The position numbers were made by a program, and so were the translations under genes. From Myxococcales bacterium (GTDB lineage Bacteria > Myxococcota_A > Polyangia > DRWM01 > JAAZOP01), in assembly GCA_012797735.1 (NCBI GenBank), contig JAAZOP010000188.1:1-37419 (forward strand): 37,419 bases of DNA, read 5' to 3'. The notes beneath the pieces were generated by a model. It did no database searches and was not told where the DNA came from. It saw nothing but the letters and a program-made list of their open reading frames with translations. Below, piece after piece: positions 26,757 through 37,419 of the stretch (positions within the stretch are counted from its first letter, which is position 1; the number at the start of each line of letters is the position of its first letter).

Positions 26757-28388
26757 GTGGGCTCGATCTTCTGCCCCGGGTGCCGATCCCGCATCACGGC
26801 CGAGGAGCCGGTTTGCGGGGTGTGCGGACTGCAGCGACCCCCGCCGGGATGGCCGGTCGACGAGCAGATCGGCCGGGTCGTGCACGGCAAGTACTGGATC
26901 GACAATCGACTCTCCGCCGGCGGGTTCGGCACCGTGTTCCTGGCGATGCAGGTGCACGGCGGCATCGAGATGGGCCGCGTGATCCTCAAGTTCCTGCACC
27001 GCGAGCACGCGCAGGACCCGGCCGTCACCAAGCGATTCCTCAACGAGGTCAAGACGGCGCGCGAGTTGATCAATCCCCACATCGTCCGCGTCTTCGACCT
27101 GGGGTACGACAACGACGGCACGCCGTTCATGGTCCAGGAGTTCATCGAGGGCGAGGGGTTGGAAGAGGTGCTGGCGCGGGAGAAGCGCCTGCCGCCGCCC
27201 CGCGCGCTCCGGCTGGCGATCCAGGTGGCCGAGGGGATGGCCGAGGCGCACGGCAAGGGGATCATCCACCGCGACCTCAAGCCGGAGAACCTTCGCATCC
27301 AGGAAGGCACCGGACTCGTCAAGATCCTCGACTTCGGCATCGCCCGCATCAGCACCACCCGCGGCACCGCCACCAACTCGTTCGTCGGCACCCCGCGCTA
27401 CATGCCCCCCGAGCAGATCAAGCAGCAGCCGCTCGACGCGGGGGTCGATATCTTCGCCCTCGGCGTGATCCTGTTCGAGATGCTGGCGGGGGAACCGCCG
27501 ATTCCGAACGAGGGGTCGGAGCTGGAGTACATCCACCTGAACCTGATCCAGGACCCGCGGCGGCTCATCGAACTGCTCCAGGACTGCCCGCGGGAACTCT
27601 CGGACTTCGTCTATTCGATGATGTCCAAGCAGCGGTCCGAGCGCCCGGCGGACATGGAGACGGTCGCCCGGACGTTGGAGGAACTGGCGGCGCGCTTCGG
27701 CTGGACCGACGACTCCACGGCGCGGTTCCGGTTGAGCGGCCCGGTGACGGGTCTCCGCAGGACGGTCGCGCAGCCGACGCGCGACCGCACCCCCTCGCCG
27801 TCGGCGACCGGCCCGGCGGCCGACGAGGAGATCGTGGAGTTGGTGCCGGCGGCGCCGCGCCGCACGGCGATGTGGGTCGGACTGGCCGGCGGCGTCGTCG
27901 GCCTCGTGGCGGTTCTGCTGGCGATCGTGCTCGTCGGCCGTGGAGGCCCCGAGGGCGGTTCTCGCGGCTCCGCGGCCGCGGACGCCGGGGTGGCCGTTCC
28001 GGGCGATGCGGCGGCCCCCGACGATGTCGGGCCGGCGGGGAAGACGGCCGGTGACGCGTTCGACGCCCCGCCGAAGGAGCCGGGTTCCGACGTTGCGGCG
28101 GTCGCGCCGCCGGTGGAGCCCGACGCCGTCGCGGTCAAGGTGGTCGATGCTGCGGAGCCGGACGCCCCCGGGGTCGACACGACGCCGCCGGTCCCCGACC
28201 GGGCGGCCGTCGACGCAGGGCGTCCATCGCGCGATCGCGGCGCGGCGCGCCGCGATGCGGGCATCATCCGGGATCTCGGCGCCTTCGGCGTGGTGCGCGA
28301 CGCGCAGACGCGCACCGACGGCGCCAATCCGTTCACGAAGATCCGCTCCACGGACGGCGGATCGCCGTTCACCAAGGTCGGGCCCTGA
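26757..28388 (+). CDS. Hanks-type Ser/Thr protein kinase with N-terminal zinc ribbon and one TM helix
   Basis: The 543-residue protein starts with a zinc ribbon (Cys6, Cys9, Cys20, Cys23). The kinase domain spans about residues 46-315, with ATP Lys78, catalytic Asp173 in HRDLKPEN, Asp192 of DFG, and a GTPRYMPPEQ activation segment. The glycine loop is SAGGFGTV, so the first Gly is Ser. A linker, one TM helix (about 372-395) and an Ala/Asp/Pro-rich outer region follow. The last 24 residues are a near repeat, DGANPFTKIRST then DGGSPFTKVGP. The GTG at 26757 is the only start that keeps the zinc ribbon. An active membrane sensor kinase is likely; its targets are not visible. Confidence 0.9.
   Translation: MGSIFCPGCRSRITAEEPVCGVCGLQRPPPGWPVDEQIGRVVHGKYWIDNRLSAGGFGTVFLAMQVHGGIEMGRVILKFLHREHAQDPAVTKRFLNEVKTARELINPHIVRVFDLGYDNDGTPFMVQEFIEGEGLEEVLAREKRLPPPRALRLAIQVAEGMAEAHGKGIIHRDLKPENLRIQEGTGLVKILDFGIARISTTRGTATNSFVGTPRYMPPEQIKQQPLDAGVDIFALGVILFEMLAGEPPIPNEGSELEYIHLNLIQDPRRLIELLQDCPRELSDFVYSMMSKQRSERPADMETVARTLEELAARFGWTDDSTARFRLSGPVTGLRRTVAQPTRDRTPSPSATGPAADEEIVELVPAAPRRTAMWVGLAGGVVGLVAVLLAIVLVGRGGPEGGSRGSAAADAGVAVPGDAAAPDDVGPAGKTAGDAFDAPPKEPGSDVAAVAPPVEPDAVAVKVVDAAEPDAPGVDTTPPVPDRAAVDAGRPSRDRGAARRDAGIIRDLGAFGVVRDAQTRTDGANPFTKIRSTDGGSPFTKVGP
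28317..28385 (+). repeat. 36-base coding repeat at the kinase C-terminus
   Basis: Two adjacent units (28317-28352 and 28353-28385) encode DGANPFTKIRST and DGGSPFTKVGP, sharing D-G-x-x-P-F-T-K. They form the very end of the kinase outer domain. Confidence 0.7.
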
Positions 28389-30382: not shown

Positions 30383-30452
30383 GGCCCGGCCGGCGGCGGC
30401 GGTGGCTTCGTTCGATTTCGTGCCTCTCGAGGCGGCGCCGTGCGGAGGTCGG

Positions 30453-31037
30453 ATGAACCCTGCGGAGGAGCGTGAACTGGTCGAGCGGGCGCGGGCGGAC
30501 GACCGGGAGGCGCGCGAAGCGATCGCCCGGCAACTCTATCCCGCCCTGCTCGCCTCGGCGTTGCGCATGGCGCGCCGCCGGGACGTGGCGGAGGACCTGG
30601 CGCAGGAGGCGGTGTTCCGGGCGTTGCGGGCGATCCGGACCTTCGACGGACGGAGCACGTTGTTCACATGGGCGTACCGGATCCTCGTGAACCTGTGGCT
30701 GAACTTCGCGCGGCAGGAGGGCCGGCAGCGCTCCGGCACCCTCTCGTTCGACGAGATGTTCGCCGACGGCAAGCAGACGGCCGACAAGGCCCTCGGTCCG
30801 GAACACCTCGCCGCGGACCGCGAGCACCTGCGCAAGCTCTGGGACGCGATCTGCGACCTGCCGGAGTCGCTGCGCATCACGCTGCTGCTGGTGGTGTTCG
30901 AGGAACTGAACTACGAGGAAATCGGTCACGCGCTCGGCTGTTCCGAGGGAACCGTGGCCTGGCGCGTGTTCCGGGCGCGGGAGATCCTTCGCGAGAACCT
31001 GCGGGACGTGCTGGTCGAAGCCCCGGAGGACGGTTAG
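30453..31037 (+). CDS. ECF-like RNA polymerase sigma factor
   Basis: The 194-residue protein has sigma-70 region 2 at about 25-95 (DVAEDLAQEAVFRALRAI, then FTWAYRILVNLWLNFAR), a linker with FDEMFADG, and region 4 at about 130-185 (LPESLRITLLLVVFEELNYEEIGHALG, then SEGTVAWRVFRAREIL, the helix-turn-helix). It has no region 1 or 3, so it is of the ECF group. The ATG has GGAGG four bases upstream and follows a good promoter. Gene order suggests the next protein controls it, though that protein is not a known anti-sigma type. Confidence 0.92.
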   Translation: MNPAEERELVERARADDREAREAIARQLYPALLASALRMARRRDVAEDLAQEAVFRALRAIRTFDGRSTLFTWAYRILVNLWLNFARQEGRQRSGTLSFDEMFADGKQTADKALGPEHLAADREHLRKLWDAICDLPESLRITLLLVVFEELNYEEIGHALGCSEGTVAWRVFRAREILRENLRDVLVEAPEDG

Positions 31038-31080
31038 GTCCCCGGCGGCGGGATCACCGGCCCGTCAGGAGGAACGGACG

Positions 31081-32769
31081 ATGAGCACGAATCGAGGACG
31101 GTCCCTGTCGGAGCGGCTCGATCGCGACGGCCCCGAGTCGGTCGTGCGCCGGGCCCGGGAGATGGGGGGTGACGCTCCGGAGATCGCCCGGGACTTCGTC
31201 GCGCTCCACGAGAAGCTCGGCGCCCTCCGGGCGCTCGAACAGGCCGCCGCTCCCCCGGCGGATCGGTTGGACGAGGTCGTGTCCAGCGTCGTGGAGCGCG
31301 TGGCCGCCGCGGGGGACGGGGAAGAGGCATCCGCCTGGCGGCGGCCGGCGTTCCCGCAGACCGAAGAGGAGACCAAGGCGATGGGCGACGACGAAACCAC
31401 CGGACAGCCTGGAGGGGAGTCGAAGGCGTCTTCCCCCGAGCCGTCCGCCGGTGCCGGCGAGGGGGCGGCGGGCGCCGCCGCGACCGCGGTCCGGCGCGCC
31501 AAGGAGGCCGCCCCCACCGACTCCGGGGTCGTGAACCTCAAGGCGCTGGCCGAGGACTACTTCAAGGCCAAGGCGGCTCGTGCCGAGGCGGTCGCGAAGC
31601 CGGCGGACGCCGCGGCAGCGGCCGCGGCCGGCGTGACCGCCCCGCCGGCGGAACGTCGCCGGGCGATGGGACCGTTGCTGGCCATCGCCGCGGGCCTCGT
31701 CGCCGTGTTCGCCGTCGTGCTCTACCTCTTCCTGCGCGGCCAGGTCGCGGGGAACGAGACCGGCACCGTTCCGGGAGGCGCCGTCGTCGCGACCGGGCCG
31801 GCCCTGGTGGCCAACGAGCCCGAACGGCCGCCGCCGCAGATCGAGGCGCCGCCGCCCAACGCCAGCGCGGAGGAGATCGAGCGATACCGGCGGGAGGTCG
31901 AGCAGCTCAAGCGGCAACTCGCCGAGCAGCAGATCGCGGAACAGTCGGCCGAGACGGCCGCGGCGGAGGCGCCCTCGTCGGCCGCCAAGGTCGAGCCGGC
32001 CGAGCGTCCCGCGGGTGCGCCTGCTTCGGGCGGCGCGACGCCGCGCCGAACCGCGAGTGGCTCGTCGGGGACGACCGGGGGGACGTCGCGTCCCGCCGCG
32101 TCCGCCGGCAGCACCGCCGCCTCGGGGGGCGGAACCGCGGCCGGCACCTCGTCCGGAACGCCTTCCACGAATCCGCTGATCAACATGCTGGGCGGCCGGA
32201 CGCCGGCCGAGGCGACGTCGGGAACCGGCTCGTCGAGCGCCGGGAGCGGCGGGTCCTCGACGCCCGCCTCCGGCGGCGGCTCTTCGACGCCCGCCTCCGG
32301 CGGCGGCTCTTCGACGCCCGCCCCCGGCGGCAGCCAGACCTCCGGAGACTCGCGGCTCGCCGGCAGCCTGACCGACCTGGGGCTCAGCGCCCCCCCGCGT
32401 GCGACGACGACCGCGCCCGCCACGGCACCCGCCACGGCGCCGGCCGCGGTCGCTCCTCCTCCTCCTCCCCCGCCGCCGCCGGAGGAAACGTTGCCGGAGA
32501 CGCTGGGGCGTCCGGAGATCCGCCGCGGCACCGACCTGGTGAAGAGCGCGGTGTTGCGATGCGGCCAGGGTCAGCCGGGCGGGACGATCACGGTCGAGTT
32601 CACCGTCAACGGGAACGACGGTTCGGTGAATGCCACCCGCGTGACCGGGGAATTCGCCGGGACGGCGGTGGGCGCCTGCGCGGAGTCGGCGGCGCGGGGG
32701 GCCACCTTCTCCCGCTTCCGCCGCTCGACGTTCACCTTCACGTTCCCGTTCGTGCTCCCGACCCAGTAG
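31081..32769 (+). CDS. Single-TM protein with low-complexity linker and TonB/AgmX-like C-terminal domain
   Basis: The 562-residue protein has a cytoplasmic part of about 195 residues (charged and helical near the start, then Ala/Pro/Glu-rich), one TM helix at about 198-217, a short coiled coil (EEIERYRREVEQLKRQLAEQQ), and a long Ser/Gly/Thr/Ala/Pro-rich outer stretch. This stretch includes three GSSTPA(S/P)GG units and a Pro run. The last 90 residues resemble the TonB/AgmX C-terminal fold (CGQGQPGGTITVEFTVNGNDG, and a second Cys in GACAESAARGATF). GGAGG lies eight bases before the ATG. It follows the sigma gene by 43 bases, so it may be its membrane-bound regulator. Its last 32 bases overlap the convergent channel-like gene. 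Confidence 0.8.
   Translation: MSTNRGRSLSERLDRDGPESVVRRAREMGGDAPEIARDFVALHEKLGALRALEQAAAPPADRLDEVVSSVVERVAAAGDGEEASAWRRPAFPQTEEETKAMGDDETTGQPGGESKASSPEPSAGAGEGAAGAAATAVRRAKEAAPTDSGVVNLKALAEDYFKAKAARAEAVAKPADAAAAAAAGVTAPPAERRRAMGPLLAIAAGLVAVFAVVLYLFLRGQVAGNETGTVPGGAVVATGPALVANEPERPPPQIEAPPPNASAEEIERYRREVEQLKRQLAEQQIAEQSAETAAAEAPSSAAKVEPAERPAGAPASGGATPRRTASGSSGTTGGTSRPAASAGSTAASGGGTAAGTSSGTPSTNPLINMLGGRTPAEATSGTGSSSAGSGGSSTPASGGGSSTPASGGGSSTPAPGGSQTSGDSRLAGSLTDLGLSAPPRATTTAPATAPATAPAAVAPPPPPPPPPEETLPETLGRPEIRRGTDLVKSAVLRCGQGQPGGTITVEFTVNGNDGSVNATRVTGEFAGTAVGACAESAARGATFSRFRRSTFTFTFPFVLPTQ
32251..32331 (+). repeat. 27-bp tandem coding repeat, three copies
   Basis: Units at 32251-32277, 32278-32304 and 32305-32331 encode GSSTPASGG, GSSTPASGG and GSSTPAPGG. 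They sit in the linker of the single-TM protein and may vary in number between strains. Confidence 0.85.
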
Positions 32770-35398
32770 CGTTCCCGCGCAGCAGGGCCGAGTCCGCGAC
32801 GGCGTAGACGGCGCGGATCCGGTCGACGCGCGGCCGATCGCCGGGCTCGGGGTTGATCGTCAGGGACCAGCGCCCGTCGTCCCGTTCGACCGCCCATCCC
32901 AGCGCGACGACGGAACCGGGGCCGCGGCGGGCCAGCGCGACCAGCAGGTCGCCGAACGACACGCGTTCGCCGGACGGGGCTTCGTCCCCCCCACGGGGGA
33001 CGAAGCGCACGAACTCCTGGCCTTGTTCCGCCAGCCGCTCCTCCAACACCGGCACGACGCCCGGCGTGAGCATCGCATGCGCGAGCAGGTGGGCCCGGAC
33101 CTGCTCCGCGGCCAGGACCGAGACGGGCGGCGGGCCGGCGGCAACCTGCGGGTCGTGGCCGCGCAGCGCGGCGGTGAGCAGTTCGGCGCGGCCCTCGCTT
33201 TCGATCTGCACGACGACGCGGCAACGGCCGAGCCGGGTGACCTCGCCGGCGATGCGCAGCACGCGCGCGGTCGTGCAATCGTCGCCGGCCGGCGCAGCCG
33301 GATGGGACAGGAAGGCCACGCGGTCGAACCGTTCCAGGTCGTCGCGGTCGACCGCGTGGGTTGCGGCTCCCGCTCGTTCGCCGGCATCGTGCAGGGTGAC
33401 GATCCCGGCCCGGCCGTCGGCCAGCACCAGGCGCAGGCGGTTCGCGTCGTCCCGGCGGAGCGTGGCGGCCGGTGCGGCCTCGCGCAGGCCGCTCTGCAGC
33501 TGTTCGCCCAGGTCCGCGAGGCTCGCCCCGGTTTCCGGCAGCAACTCGACCTCGACGCCCGGGAGGAAGCGGATCAGTTCGACGAGCAGGGCGGGCAGGC
33601 AGGGGTGGCTGCCGACCAGCAGCACGCGCCGCACGTCATGGCCGACCAGTTCGAGGGATTCGGCGAGCCGCGCCGCGGCGGGGGCCGGCGCCGGGTCCGG
33701 TTCGTCGAGACGTCCTGCTTGCAGGTCGCGCACCCAGTCGCGCACCAGATGCTCGGTCATCGCCAGGGCCGCCAGCCCGACCACGCGGTCGGCGGAAGGT
33801 GCGCCGGCGTCGAATCCGAGGCGGGTCGAACAGTCTTCGATCCGTCGCAGCGGGCTGGATCCGGGCGGGGTCTCGGCATCCGGGCGGGCGACGAGCGTGC
33901 CGAGCGGCAGGACGCGGTGCCGGCTCCAGGACGAGGCGAGCGGGGGCGCAGGGGGGAGCCGGCGCGAGGCGCCCCGGGCCCGGCGGTCCAGCCTCGGTTC
34001 CGCCAGGCGGACCCAGATGGTCTGGCCGGTCGTGGCGAGCACCTGTTCGTAGAGCGGGTCGAGTCCCGGGTCGAGGAGATGCACGGCGAGGAAGCGGCCG
34101 AGGAGCGATTCCATGTCGAGCACGGCGCAGCCGATGCCGGCGTCGTGCAGGCGGTCGTGCAGCGGCCGGACGGCGGGCAGGCTGGCCGTCTCGCGCAGTT
34201 CGAGGAAGAGGTCGCGCGGGACCGGGCCGCCGAGGTGGCGGGACTCCTGTGCGGCGGCGCGCAGCAGTTCCTCGCTGACCGCCAGGGCGCTGGACAGGCA
34301 GCGCGCGTCGCCCGCGGGATCGGCCTCGTCGGAGACGAGGGCCACGCAGCGCGCCTGGTTGGCGGCGACGAGCCGCGCACCGTTGCGGTCGACCAGCGCC
34401 GTCGGACGATAGCTCACGTCGCGCAGTTCGGGGTCGAGCAGGAACGCCGGCGGTTCCGGCTCCGTGCCGGCCCAGACGATGCGGCGTCGTCCGAACCAGC
34501 GCCGAATGCGCCGGGCGGGCGAGCGGAAGCCGCCTTCGTGCGTCGGGCGTTCCCGCACGTTGCGCGGTTCCAGCCGGCGCAGGTCGCGCAGGATGCGGCG
34601 CGCCGCACCGGGGGGCGCGGCCAGCACGACGTGTCCCTCCATGTCGAGCGGGCGGAGGCGGGCGGCCACGACCAGCGCGCCGACCACGTTCGTACCGAGA
34701 CCGATCAGGAACGCCATCAGGAAGATGCCGGTCAAGGTCAGCAGCACCGACGCGGCGACGACCGCCGGCTCGTCGTGCAGCGTGCGCACGACGTTGTCCG
34801 CACTCTCCAACTGGAGGAACGACCACCAGAACGCCTCCAACACGTCCCCGCGGTGCAGCGGGCTGTGCGGCACCGCGTACAGCAGCAGGGCCGCCGAGAC
34901 GAAGGACAACGTGGCCACCGTCAGCAGCAACAGCAGCAGCTGGCCCAGGCGCTCCCGGCGCGTGATCACGATCCACAGGTCGTGCAGCAGGTCGGCCGCG
35001 TAGCGGACGACGATCACGATCCGGACGAGCCGGGCGAGGCGCAGCAGCCGCACCGACTCGAACCAGTGCCACCACGGCACGAACGACGCGACGGCGACGA
35101 AGTCGAAGACCAGCAGCAGCGGTTCCAGCGGCCGGCGCTCCCGGTCGAGCACGGGTTCGCCGGCCGCGCGGCGCCGGCGCAGCGCACCCCGGCGGGCGAA
35201 GAACAGGCGGACCCGCAGGAGCAGTTCCAGGCCGAACGCCGGCAGGAACACCGCTCCGTGCAACCACGGCCGGTCGAGCGCCGGGAGCAGCGAGACCGCG
35301 ATCAGCAGCACGACGAACGCCTTGACGGCGGCCGATTCGAGGAGGCGCTCGATCCACTGGTTGCCGACCGATAGGCCGGCGGTCGGCTCACGTGGCAT
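32738..35398 (-). CDS. Large ion-channel-like protein with atypical pore and RCK-like cytoplasmic domains
   Basis: The predicted 886-residue protein has about five or six helices in the first 240 residues. A paddle-like, Arg-rich helix (ESVRLLRLARLVRIVIVVRYA) is followed by two helices with a pore loop between them. The loop reads FWWSFLQLESADNVVRTL (Gln196-Leu-Glu-Ser-Ala-Asp-Asn202), where a K+ channel has TVGYG. The ESADN core recalls the altered filters of CASTOR/POLLUX-type channels. The remaining 640 residues look like paired RCK-type regulatory units (GHVVLAAPPGAARRILRDL, and VRRVLLVGSHPCLPALLVEL). Its ATG lies inside the SctJ-like gene (11-base overlap), and no ribosome-binding site is clear, so coupled translation is likely. 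Confidence 0.8.
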   Translation of the reverse strand: MPREPTAGLSVGNQWIERLLESAAVKAFVVLLIAVSLLPALDRPWLHGAVFLPAFGLELLLRVRLFFARRGALRRRRAAGEPVLDRERRPLEPLLLVFDFVAVASFVPWWHWFESVRLLRLARLVRIVIVVRYAADLLHDLWIVITRRERLGQLLLLLLTVATLSFVSAALLLYAVPHSPLHRGDVLEAFWWSFLQLESADNVVRTLHDEPAVVAASVLLTLTGIFLMAFLIGLGTNVVGALVVAARLRPLDMEGHVVLAAPPGAARRILRDLRRLEPRNVRERPTHEGGFRSPARRIRRWFGRRRIVWAGTEPEPPAFLLDPELRDVSYRPTALVDRNGARLVAANQARCVALVSDEADPAGDARCLSSALAVSEELLRAAAQESRHLGGPVPRDLFLELRETASLPAVRPLHDRLHDAGIGCAVLDMESLLGRFLAVHLLDPGLDPLYEQVLATTGQTIWVRLAEPRLDRRARGASRRLPPAPPLASSWSRHRVLPLGTLVARPDAETPPGSSPLRRIEDCSTRLGFDAGAPSADRVVGLAALAMTEHLVRDWVRDLQAGRLDEPDPAPAPAAARLAESLELVGHDVRRVLLVGSHPCLPALLVELIRFLPGVEVELLPETGASLADLGEQLQSGLREAAPAATLRRDDANRLRLVLADGRAGIVTLHDAGERAGAATHAVDRDDLERFDRVAFLSHPAAPAGDDCTTARVLRIAGEVTRLGRCRVVVQIESEGRAELLTAALRGHDPQVAAGPPPVSVLAAEQVRAHLLAHAMLTPGVVPVLEERLAEQGQEFVRFVPRGGDEAPSGERVSFGDLLVALARRGPGSVVALGWAVERDDGRWSLTINPEPGDRPRVDRIRAVYAVADSALLRGNATGSGARTGT

Positions 35399-36182
35399 GG
35401 CGGCGCGTCCGGCCCAGGGTCACCCGGCTCCAGACCAGCAACGCGGCGAGGGCCGCGATGGCGGCCAGACCGCCGACGAGCAGGGCGAGCAGCGGTCCGC
35501 GACTGCCGGTCCGGACTTCGAAGGGTCCGAGCGATTCCCAGGCGTCCGCCGCGGCCCCGGGCACGGTCACCGCCTGCAGCACCACTTCCACCGCTTCCGG
35601 CGCCAGCCCGTCCACCGCGCCGACGACCAGCCGGCGGACGTCCGCCGCGGCCGGAGCCGGCGCGTCCGCCCGGTGTCGGACGAGCACCGAGGCGCGCGGC
35701 GGCCGGAACTCCGCCTCGGGAGCGAAGGCGGGGTCCTCCCCGAGCGGGAATGCGACGTGCACGCGGGCCTCGAGCACGCCGTCGATCGATTCGAGGCTCT
35801 GTTCCACGTCGAGCGAGACGGCGGCGGCGAGCCGCGCGCGTTCCTCGGCCGGGGAAGGAACCAGGCCGCCGGAGGCGGCGAGCGTGGCGGAGCCGGCGCG
35901 CGGGGCCCGCGGCAGGCCGTACGCCGCCAGGATCGCCCTGGCCTGCGGGGCGTCGTCCGCCGCGACGCGCAGTTCGAAGGACGACTCGCGCCCGCGCTGC
36001 GTCGCCTCCAGTTTCGCCGGAACGCCGTGGCGCTCCAGCGCCCCCGCCGCGCGGCTCGCCTCCGCCTCGCGCGTGGTCCGCAGCACGGTCTCCGAGCAGC
36101 CGGCAACGGTCAGGACCACCGCTGCCAGGGCGAGAGCGACGAGACGGGCGCCGCGCGGACGGATCCCCCCGGTGCCGGTCAC
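35388..36182 (-). CDS. SctJ/YscJ-like ring lipoprotein
   Basis: The predicted 264-residue protein has a lipoprotein signal ending VLTVAGC (Cys29), two ring-building-motif folds (about 30-90 and 110-205), and a TM helix at about 228-250, the layout of SctJ (EscJ/YscJ/PrgK), the inner-membrane ring of type III secretion. The second fold shows EQSLESIDGVLEARVHVAFP and PRASVLVRH, typical of the family. Length fits. The GTG at 36182 has GGAGG seven bases upstream and overlaps the stop of the GYF/AgmX-like gene (GTGA). No other type III gene is seen here; more may lie to the right. Confidence 0.85.
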   Translation of the reverse strand: MTGTGGIRPRGARLVALALAAVVLTVAGCSETVLRTTREAEASRAAGALERHGVPAKLEATQRGRESSFELRVAADDAPQARAILAAYGLPRAPRAGSATLAASGGLVPSPAEERARLAAAVSLDVEQSLESIDGVLEARVHVAFPLGEDPAFAPEAEFRPPRASVLVRHRADAPAPAAADVRRLVVGAVDGLAPEAVEVVLQAVTVPGAAADAWESLGPFEVRTGSRGPLLALLVGGLAAIAALAALLVWSRVTLGRTRRHAT

Positions 36183-37419
36183 CGGACGACCTCCATCGAG
36201 AACGCCGAGCGCATCTGGCCGTAGGCTTGGCTGTCGAAGCGCACGGACGACAGGACACCCTGGATGCAGCTTTCCAGGGCGCCGGACTGGCCGGGGACGC
36301 GGGCGGCCACCACTTCGTGCCCGCGGATCAGCATCTCGATGTTGATCTGGCCGGGCATGTTCGGGTTGCGGCTCATCTCGGCCCGCACGCACGAGAACAG
36401 GGCGCTCTGCTTGGAACGCATCTTGGCGTTGATCTCGCGGGCCGTCAGGATCGGCGCACTGTCGCCGCTGCCCAGGTCGAGGTCGCCGCCTGCGTTCCAG
36501 GCCGAGTCCCAGTCCTGCAGGCCGCCGCCCGGCCGATGGGAGCCGGTGCCGGAGCGGCGCGACCCGGGCCGCCGCTTCTTCTTCTCCTCGACGGTCGGCG
36601 GCGGTTGCGTCTCGAGCGACGCCTCGGTGAACTTGGCCTGGACGCCATCGACCTGCAGCGGGCCGCCGCTGGCAACCTGCTGGTCCTCCGTGACCTGGGT
36701 CGCGCCTTCGCTGGTCGTGCGCAGGCCGTAGTACAGGCCGACGGCGGTGCCCGCCACCGCCACGGCGATGCCGAGCGCGATGGCCACCTTCGCCGCCAGC
36801 CCCATCCGCTCGACGCGCACCGAGCGCTTGAGCGCTTCCTGTTCCTCCTGCTGCTTCTTGCGGACCTTGTACTTCTCGAGGAACGGCTTGAACGGCTCGA
36901 CCTGCTTGAGCTTGCAGCGCACGCCGGTCTCGAGGTTGGTGACGGTGTGGTCGGCCAGCGCCGTCCCCTTGAGGATCATCTCGGCCAACTCGCGATCGCG
37001 GAACGGGCCGTGGTCGAGCTTGTCCTTCTGCAGCATCCAACGCTCGACGTCGTCGGCGTCGAGCGACGAGAGGATCGAGCCGAAATCGACGGACGAGGCG
37101 CGGCCGGTGATGGGCAGGGCCGGGATCGGACCGGGCGGCGGAGCCTCCGGCTTGCGGAACTCCTCGTCGGCGCCCACGCGGCTGCCGCGGGCCGGGACGG
37201 AACTCTGCCGGCCGGAGGCGGCGGCGGCCCGGAGCAGCGCGCCCGCGCCCCCCTCGGCGGCGGGCACCGGTCCCACGGCGATCACGCCGCCCGCAAGCCC
37301 CTGCTGCGAAGTCATCGCGCCCTCCGTCACCAGAAAGGCGCAGGCGTCCGCGTAGTAGGACGAGGTGTAGCAGATGCCGCGTTCGTCCGTGTCGAGGGAA
37401 GCGCCCAGCGAGAAGTCCA
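36179..37419 (-). CDS. GYF-domain, single-TM protein with AgmX/TonB-like C-terminus (5' end outside window)
   Basis: In this frame no stop occurs up to the right edge. The 34 codons before the first good ATG (37315) have G or C in the third place in 31 cases and read as normal protein, so the gene probably starts beyond the window. If it starts at 37315 (GGAGG five bases upstream) it has 378 residues. Counting from there, a GYF-like domain spans about 90-150 (RWMLQKDKLDHGPFRDRELAEMI), a TM helix is at about 171-195, then a charged linker, and an AgmX-like C-terminal unit with two Cys (LFSCVRAEM, LESCIQGVL) lies at about 300-378. It heads a coupled set with the SctJ-like and channel-like genes. 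Confidence 0.75.
   Translation of the reverse strand, partial: DFSLGASLDTDERGICYTSSYYADACAFLVTEGAMTSQQGLAGGVIAVGPVPAAEGGAGALLRAAAASGRQSSVPARGSRVGADEEFRKPEAPPPGPIPALPITGRASSVDFGSILSSLDADDVERWMLQKDKLDHGPFRDRELAEMILKGTALADHTVTNLETGVRCKLKQVEPFKPFLEKYKVRKKQQEEQEALKRSVRVERMGLAAKVAIALGIAVAVAGTAVGLYYGLRTTSEGATQVTEDQQVASGGPLQVDGVQAKFTEASLETQPPPTVEEKKKRRPGSRRSGTGSHRPGGGLQDWDSAWNAGGDLDLGSGDSAPILTAREINAKMRSKQSALFSCVRAEMSRNPNMPGQINIEMLIRGHEVVAARVPGQSGALESCIQGVLSSVRFDSQAYGQMRSAFSMEVVR

What the first reader, a model, noticed from the sequence alone, without database searches (positions are those of the whole stretch)
32738..37419. Coupled set: GYF/AgmX-like protein, SctJ ring lipoprotein and channel-like protein
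Three minus-strand genes overlap by 4 and 11 bases. SctJ proteins normally build the inner-membrane ring of type III secretion; here the partner is a large channel-like protein with RCK-like domains and, upstream, a GYF-domain protein with a TonB/AgmX-like outer domain. I know of no described machine with this set. It may be an envelope-spanning complex that joins a ring to gated ion flow.
Basis: partly seen in the sequence, partly recalled or inferred. Interest (0 to 1): 0.8.

Follow-up and report, generated by a model that had tools for sequence, protein, structure and literature searches.

The report
Secretion ring gene coupled to pseudokinase
This Myxococcota stretch encodes the inner-ring lipoprotein of a type III secretion system whose genes are scattered around the genome, written back-to-back with a membrane-spanning dead protein kinase that keeps it company in many relatives, while the neighbouring ion channel is only a local passenger of one genus.

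Summary
The three minus-strand genes and their 4- and 11-base overlaps are real. The window is a whole contig of a Myxococcota-like MAG, and its right end cuts the 'GYF' gene. In relatives that gene encodes a Ser/Thr pseudokinase + GYF-like motif + one TM helix + AgmX/TonB-like tail. The ATP-binding Lys and HRD Asp are lost in every copy with an alignable kinase domain.

The SctJ gene encodes a genuine YscJ/PrgK-type lipoprotein, the only SctJ/FliF match in a 99.85%-complete genome. That genome also has one SctV, SctU and SctR and one T3SS-type SctN, each on its own contig. In the three sister genomes SctV, SctR, SctN and SctJ also lie on separate contigs. So this is the inner ring of a dispersed non-flagellar T3SS, not a separate machine.

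The pseudokinase-SctJ pair recurs in 16 of 78 relatives (six families) and in 16 of 40 further Myxococcota loci. The channel is CASTOR/POLLUX/DMI1-like. It is beside SctJ only in this genus (4 of 4, always 11 bases overlap).

The 'ring plus gated ion flow' reading is therefore not supported. The better reading is a secretion ring coupled to a pseudokinase scaffold that may dock cytosolic partners and reach across the periplasm; that function is inferred.

The parts
36179..37293 (-). 3' part of the pseudokinase - GYF-like - TM - AgmX/TonB-like tail gene (stop at 36179-36181); the pseudokinase domain lies beyond the contig end
   Evidence: open frame; colinear with full-length orthologs L034, L036, L037; kinase fold by Pfam and Foldseek; dead catalytic residues
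37001..37039 (-). GYF-like motif W-x(7)-DHGPF, invariant in 20 SctJ-linked orthologs
   Evidence: alignment A5; PF14237 GYF_2 in 5 of 20 members
36722..36787 (-). single transmembrane helix, basic residues on the N-terminal side (N-in, C-out)
   Evidence: sequence of A5 row 1; long helix in the model of the ortholog
36209..36445 (-). AgmX/PglI (TonB-like) C-terminal domain with two invariant cysteines
   Evidence: NF033768 in 18 of 20 members, window 4.8e-7; C225 and C266 invariant
35388..36182 (-). SctJ/YscJ-type inner-ring lipoprotein; GTG start overlaps the upstream stop by 4 b
32738..35398 (-). CASTOR/POLLUX/DMI1-like channel: Ion_trans module without TVGYG, then RCK-like domains; starts 11 b inside sctJ
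31081..32769 (+). convergent single-TM protein with AgmX-like tail (likely anti-sigma); homologs near SctJ in 7 other families
   Evidence: NF033768 1.6e-5; neighbour cluster 2
30444..31037 (+). ECF-type sigma factor paired with the AgmX-tail protein
   Evidence: Sigma70_r2 1.5e-14; cluster 5
   Evidence: blastn match to L033 ends at window 37293 although L033 continues

Best explanation
The locus encodes the inner-membrane ring lipoprotein (SctJ) of a non-flagellar type III secretion system whose core genes are dispersed over the chromosome, translationally coupled to a bitopic pseudokinase. Shown by sequence: SctJ identity; presence of SctV, SctU, SctR and a T3SS-type SctN in the same genome; the recurrent pairing; loss of the kinase catalytic residues; architecture cytoplasmic pseudokinase + GYF-like motif, one TM helix, low-complexity linker, AgmX/TonB-like domain with two invariant cysteines. 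Inferred: the dead kinase/GYF head docks cytosolic partners (phospho-independent signalling, or sorting-platform parts), the tail reaches across the periplasm to the outer membrane or cell wall, and the SctJ ring recruits it, so that it scaffolds or times assembly of this system. The CASTOR/POLLUX-like channel joined the transcript only in this genus and is most likely co-expressed cargo rather than a part of the ring.
For: SctJ profile matches PrgK 2.7e-32, MxiJ 5.8e-28, EscJ 3.7e-25; lipobox Cys invariant in 30 sequences. It is the only match in its genome. SctV is closer to hrcV (480 bits) than FlhA (418); SctU, SctR and SctN are on other contigs; the SctN ortholog carries T3SS_ATPase_C. 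Two complete genomes without SctV (G024, G032) also lack SctJ/FliF. GYF-TM-AgmX gene next to SctJ in 16 of 78 relatives, six families, and in 16 of 40 further loci. Pseudokinase: PknA/PknB fold; beta3 Lys to Arg/His/Trp and HRD Asp to Ala/Ser/Gly in every copy with an alignable kinase domain, no HRD in the 20 further orthologs examined. Channel beside SctJ only in genus g1.
Against: The pseudokinase gene is also unlinked to SctJ in many relatives, and persists in G024 and G032, which lack SctV and SctJ; so it has at least one role apart from this system, or is not part of it. G030 has SctJ but no SctV was detected, perhaps an assembly gap. SctS, SctT, SctQ, SctL and the secretin were not searched. 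TIGR02544 is below its curated cut-off here (128.9 vs 161.95 bits). SctN of this MAG has an in-frame TAG. The window's own kinase domain is not assembled.
Confidence: 0.62

Rival explanations
1. A dedicated envelope complex in which the SctJ-like ring is joined to the CASTOR/POLLUX-like channel and controls ion flow.
For: Channel start lies inside sctJ with the same 11-b overlap in all four genomes of the genus; the gene is conserved at 58-75% identity.
Against: Channel is not linked to SctJ outside the genus; the ring protein is the only SctJ/FliF match of a genome that has a T3SS export apparatus.
Confidence: 0.06
2. The pseudokinase-GYF-AgmX protein is a general envelope or polarity scaffold (GltJ/AgmX-like) unrelated to secretion; its adjacency to sctJ is an inherited operon accident.
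For: Near-universal in the class (72 of 78 genomes at E<=1e-10, some of these partial tail matches) and usually unlinked; kept in SctV-less genomes. SctJ's neighbours vary: FliA-like sigma, MlaFE, histidine kinase, FliG-like or YscD-like proteins.
Against: Pair recurs in six families and in 16 of 40 further loci, usually within about 180 b, which is unlikely to be retained without co-function.
Confidence: 0.25
3. The SctJ-like protein is not a T3SS part but a free-standing YscJ-domain lipoprotein, for example serving lipid transport, as it precedes MlaF/MlaE-type genes in two families.
For: MlaF/MlaE-type ABC genes follow SctJ in G047 and an ABC gene follows it in G074; no T3SS gene is adjacent in the genus.
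Against: Only SctJ/FliF match in a genome with SctV/U/R/N; in other Myxococcota the next gene is FliG-like (L204, L209) or carries a YscD cytoplasmic domain (L198); absent from the SctV-less genomes G024 and G032.
Confidence: 0.07

Closest known systems
'Needleless' T3SS* of Myxococcus xanthus (PMC12075869) and the Myxo group of Abby & Rocha (PMC3459982)
   Same: Myxococcota non-flagellar T3SS with SctJ, export apparatus and ATPase
   Different: There the genes form one cluster (mxan_2434-2464); here SctJ, SctV, SctR and SctN are on separate contigs in all four genomes, and SctJ is paired with a pseudokinase. Secretin and needle absence were not tested here
SctJ/PrgK/MxiJ inner-ring lipoproteins
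   Same: Lipobox, ring domains, hydrophobic C-terminus; PDB profile match 2.7e-32
   Different: Below the curated TIGR02544 cut-off; not in a T3SS operon
GltJ/AgmX of gliding motility
   Same: AgmX/PglI tail in 18 of 20 members; weak GltJ match in 10 of 20
   Different: N-terminal pseudokinase; GltJ equivalog score far below cut-off (17.9 vs 450 bits); linked to SctJ
CASTOR/POLLUX/DMI1 channels
   Same: Ion_trans-type pore without TVGYG followed by RCK-like domains; profile match 1.8e-7 (PMC6697748)
   Different: Pore loop reads LESADN in this genus against QDPGN in distant homologs; ion selectivity unknown

Membership tests
SctJ/YscJ | YscJ_FliF ring domain | tested here: met
   PF01514 2e-19, 70.6 bits vs cut-off 24.4
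SctJ/YscJ | lipoprotein signal with invariant Cys and C-terminal TM | tested here: met
   C43 invariant in 30 sequences, hydrophobic C-terminus
SctJ/YscJ | above the curated SctJ equivalog cut-off (TIGR02544) | tested here: not met
   128.9 vs 161.95 bits; other class members also below
Flagellar FliF | ~525-600-aa two-TM MS-ring protein | tested here: not met
   short SctJ-type protein; fliF 33.5 vs 129.75 bits
Non-flagellar T3SS | SctV-type export gate in the genome | tested here: met
   hrcV 480 vs FlhA 418 bits for the N part; 179 vs 160 for the C part
Non-flagellar T3SS | SctN ATPase, SctR and SctU | tested here: met
   SctU scores equally as FlhB; SctN of this MAG has an in-frame TAG
Non-flagellar T3SS | SctD large inner ring protein | tested here: inconclusive
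   no TIGR02500 match over cut-off in 49 genomes, mostly short FHA-region hits, no positive control among the control genomes
Non-flagellar T3SS | core genes in one cluster | tested here: not met
   SctJ, SctV, SctR and SctN on separate contigs in G000-G003
Needleless T3SS* | no secretin, needle or translocon | not tested
   no search was made for SctC or SctF
Active Ser/Thr kinase (Hanks type) | beta3 Lys and HRD Asp | tested here: not met
   K to R/H/W and D to A/S/G in every copy with an alignable kinase domain
GYF domain protein | GYF domain profile match | tested here: inconclusive
   PF14237 in 5 of 20 members, best 1e-4, none for the window copy
AgmX/PglI tail protein | NF033768 match | tested here: inconclusive
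   18 of 20 members at E<=0.01, window 29.8 bits vs cut-off 40
CASTOR/POLLUX-type channel | Ion_trans pore without TVGYG plus RCK gating ring | tested here: met
   Ion_trans over cut-off; profile matches CASTOR and DMI1 rings; pore LESADN; full ring not modelled

The most novel reading that the evidence does not exclude
The pseudokinase-GYF-TM-AgmX protein is a structural replacement for SctD, the large inner-ring protein, in dispersed Myxococcota type III secretion systems. It would couple the SctJ ring in the inner membrane to cytosolic partners through a dead kinase, and to the outer membrane through a TonB-like tail in place of a secretin link.
Probability: 0.2. Interest if true: 0.75.

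Novelty: new variant of a known kind. Interest (0 to 1): 0.48.

Why it matters
Myxococcota carry an early-branching non-flagellar T3SS that acts in prey lysis in M. xanthus, but how it is regulated and how it meets the outer membrane without a secretin is open. A conserved pseudokinase with a TonB-like tail, encoded back-to-back with the ring lipoprotein in many lineages, is a concrete and testable candidate. It also suggests that this T3SS can be fully dispersed, so cluster-based surveys would miss it.

Tried and rejected
Ring-channel machine: rejected as a general unit because the channel is linked only in one genus. GYF protein as a complete 383-aa protein: rejected, the contig end cuts the gene. 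Flagellar origin: rejected, the short SctJ is the only SctJ/FliF match and SctV is closer to hrcV. The channel model was poor (pLDDT 45, pTM 0.32), so no fold search was made with it. phmmer of the channel alone gave no significant PDB match; the profile did. SctD search was uninformative. Paper searches for SctJ in Myxococcota and for pseudokinase with T3SS in myxobacteria gave nothing on point; the paper library is incomplete, so this is not proof of novelty.

Full report
What is in the window. The window is the whole of contig C530 of a 5.3-Mb, 662-contig MAG that is 99.85% complete. Three minus-strand genes sit at its right end. The channel gene (32738-35398) starts 11 bases inside sctJ, and sctJ (35388-36182) starts with GTG overlapping the upstream stop by 4 bases. 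The 11-base overlap occurs in all four genomes of the genus; the 4-base overlap is shared with G002, while in G001 and G003 sctJ starts just after the upstream stop.

The 'GYF protein' is a fragment. Its frame is open to the contig end and nucleotide similarity to sister genome G002 stops at 37293, although the G002 contig continues. In G003 (L034), G004 (L036) and G047 (L037) the same gene encodes an N-terminal kinase-fold domain (Pkinase about 1e-21 in L034 and L036; Foldseek best match PknA, 2.1e-18). It is followed by a linker, a W-x(7)-DHGPF GYF-like motif, one TM helix, a low-complexity stretch, and an AgmX/PglI-type tail with two invariant cysteines. The beta3 lysine is Arg, His or Trp, and the HRD aspartate is Ala, Ser or Gly ('HGALRP'), in every copy with an alignable kinase domain. 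Among 20 further orthologs, where a motif of this type was found it was HG[A/G/T], and none had HRD. It is therefore a pseudokinase. The kinase part was not found in the window's own assembly.

SctJ. The protein matches YscJ_FliF (2e-19) and TIGR02544 (1.8e-37, below cut-off). As a 30-row profile it matches PrgK, MxiJ and EscJ in the PDB (2.7e-32 to 3.7e-25). The lipobox cysteine is invariant. It is the only SctJ/FliF match in its genome.

The T3SS is scattered. G000 has one FHIPEP gene, split over the ends of C306 and C311 and closer to hrcV than FlhA; one FlhB/SctU gene on C501; one FliP/SctR on C512; and one T3SS-type ATPase on C372, whose G003 ortholog has T3SS_ATPase_C. In G001, G002 and G003 SctJ, SctV, SctR and SctN are again on separate contigs; in G003 the neighbours of SctN, SctV and SctR include DnaJ-, epimerase-, esterase- and MshEN-domain proteins. 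G001 and G003 have only about 150-160 contigs each, so fragmentation alone is an unlikely cause, though it cannot be excluded for every pair. The FHIPEP-negative, 100%-complete genomes G024 and G032 lack SctJ/FliF; G030 (SctJ present, FHIPEP undetected) is an exception.

Linkage of the pair. Using alignment profiles, the GYF-TM-AgmX gene lies next to SctJ in 16 of 78 relatives from families f1, f2, f9, f12, f15 and f18, and in 16 of 40 further loci from named MAGs, nearly all Myxococcota, several of them Sandaracinaceae. Spacing is tight: where a lipobox could be placed downstream, the pseudokinase stop is 45-170 bases from the SctJ lipobox codon. A pair repeated in this way is not chance. But 72 of 78 genomes have a match to the family at E<=1e-10, many of them single long orthologs that are not beside SctJ and some only partial tail matches, and G024 and G032 keep the gene without SctV or SctJ. 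So the pseudokinase has some role beyond this system, or joins it only in some lineages.

The channel. Profile search puts it with CASTOR and DMI1 (1.8e-7, 3.6e-7) and with BK RCK regions; its pore has no TVGYG and reads LESADN, in line with CASTOR lacking TVGYG (PMC6697748). It is next to SctJ only in genus g1; homologs in family f7 and in G021, G013 and G029 are elsewhere.

Neighbours downstream. Homologs of the convergent AgmX-tail protein (31081-32769) lie near SctJ in seven other families, often immediately after it and convergent, and in some with the ECF sigma factor. The channel gene thus appears inserted between SctJ and this older neighbour. This is inference from gene order, not a dated event.

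How it likely works. Shown: architecture, pairing and genomic context. Inferred: the SctJ ring belongs to the dispersed T3SS; the pseudokinase head binds cytosolic partners without phosphorylating them; the tail contacts the outer membrane or cell wall; the channel is co-expressed without being part of the ring. M. xanthus uses a needleless T3SS* for prey lysis (PMC12075869), and the Myxo group branches at the base of non-flagellar T3SSs (PMC3459982); the large inner ring protein is listed only for the long Myxo locus, which leaves room for a substitute. That the pseudokinase is this substitute is a hypothesis only; the SctD search was not informative.

Limits. No secretin, needle, SctS, SctT, SctQ or SctL search was made. 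Taxonomy rests on named relatives. The in-frame TAG in SctN of this MAG may be a sequencing error or a real defect; orthologs in G001-G003 match without a stop. Gene calls in relatives rest on open frames and homology, not on a trained gene finder.

Noticed in passing
window 30444-32769 (+): ECF sigma factor followed by a single-TM protein with an AgmX-like tail, a possible sigma/anti-sigma pair whose homologs lie near SctJ in several families.
   Followed up: partly
window 26757-28385 (+): A second Ser/Thr kinase gene with a strong Pkinase match (3.9e-48), in the same window as the pseudokinase fragment.
   Followed up: no
L147 (G000:C372) 1047-2282: T3SS ATPase SctN of this MAG carries an in-frame TAG near its start; sister genomes match without a stop.
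   Followed up: partly
L204 8782-10008, L209 8822-9850, L198 7579-9849: In an Archangiaceae MAG and another Myxococcota MAG a FliG-like protein is encoded directly after SctJ; in L198 a YscD-cytoplasmic-domain/FHA/TPR protein.
   Followed up: partly
L037 3966-5479, L042 10412-11143: MlaF-type ABC ATPase (and MlaE permease in L037) genes follow SctJ in two families, in the same orientation.
   Followed up: partly
L088 4321-5190, L099 2890-3600 and others in cluster 4: In family f5 and several others a FliA/WhiG-like sigma factor gene lies just upstream of SctJ.
   Followed up: partly
window 37294-37419: Last 126 bases of the contig match nothing at the corresponding place in the sister genome; possible chimeric end.
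   Followed up: partly
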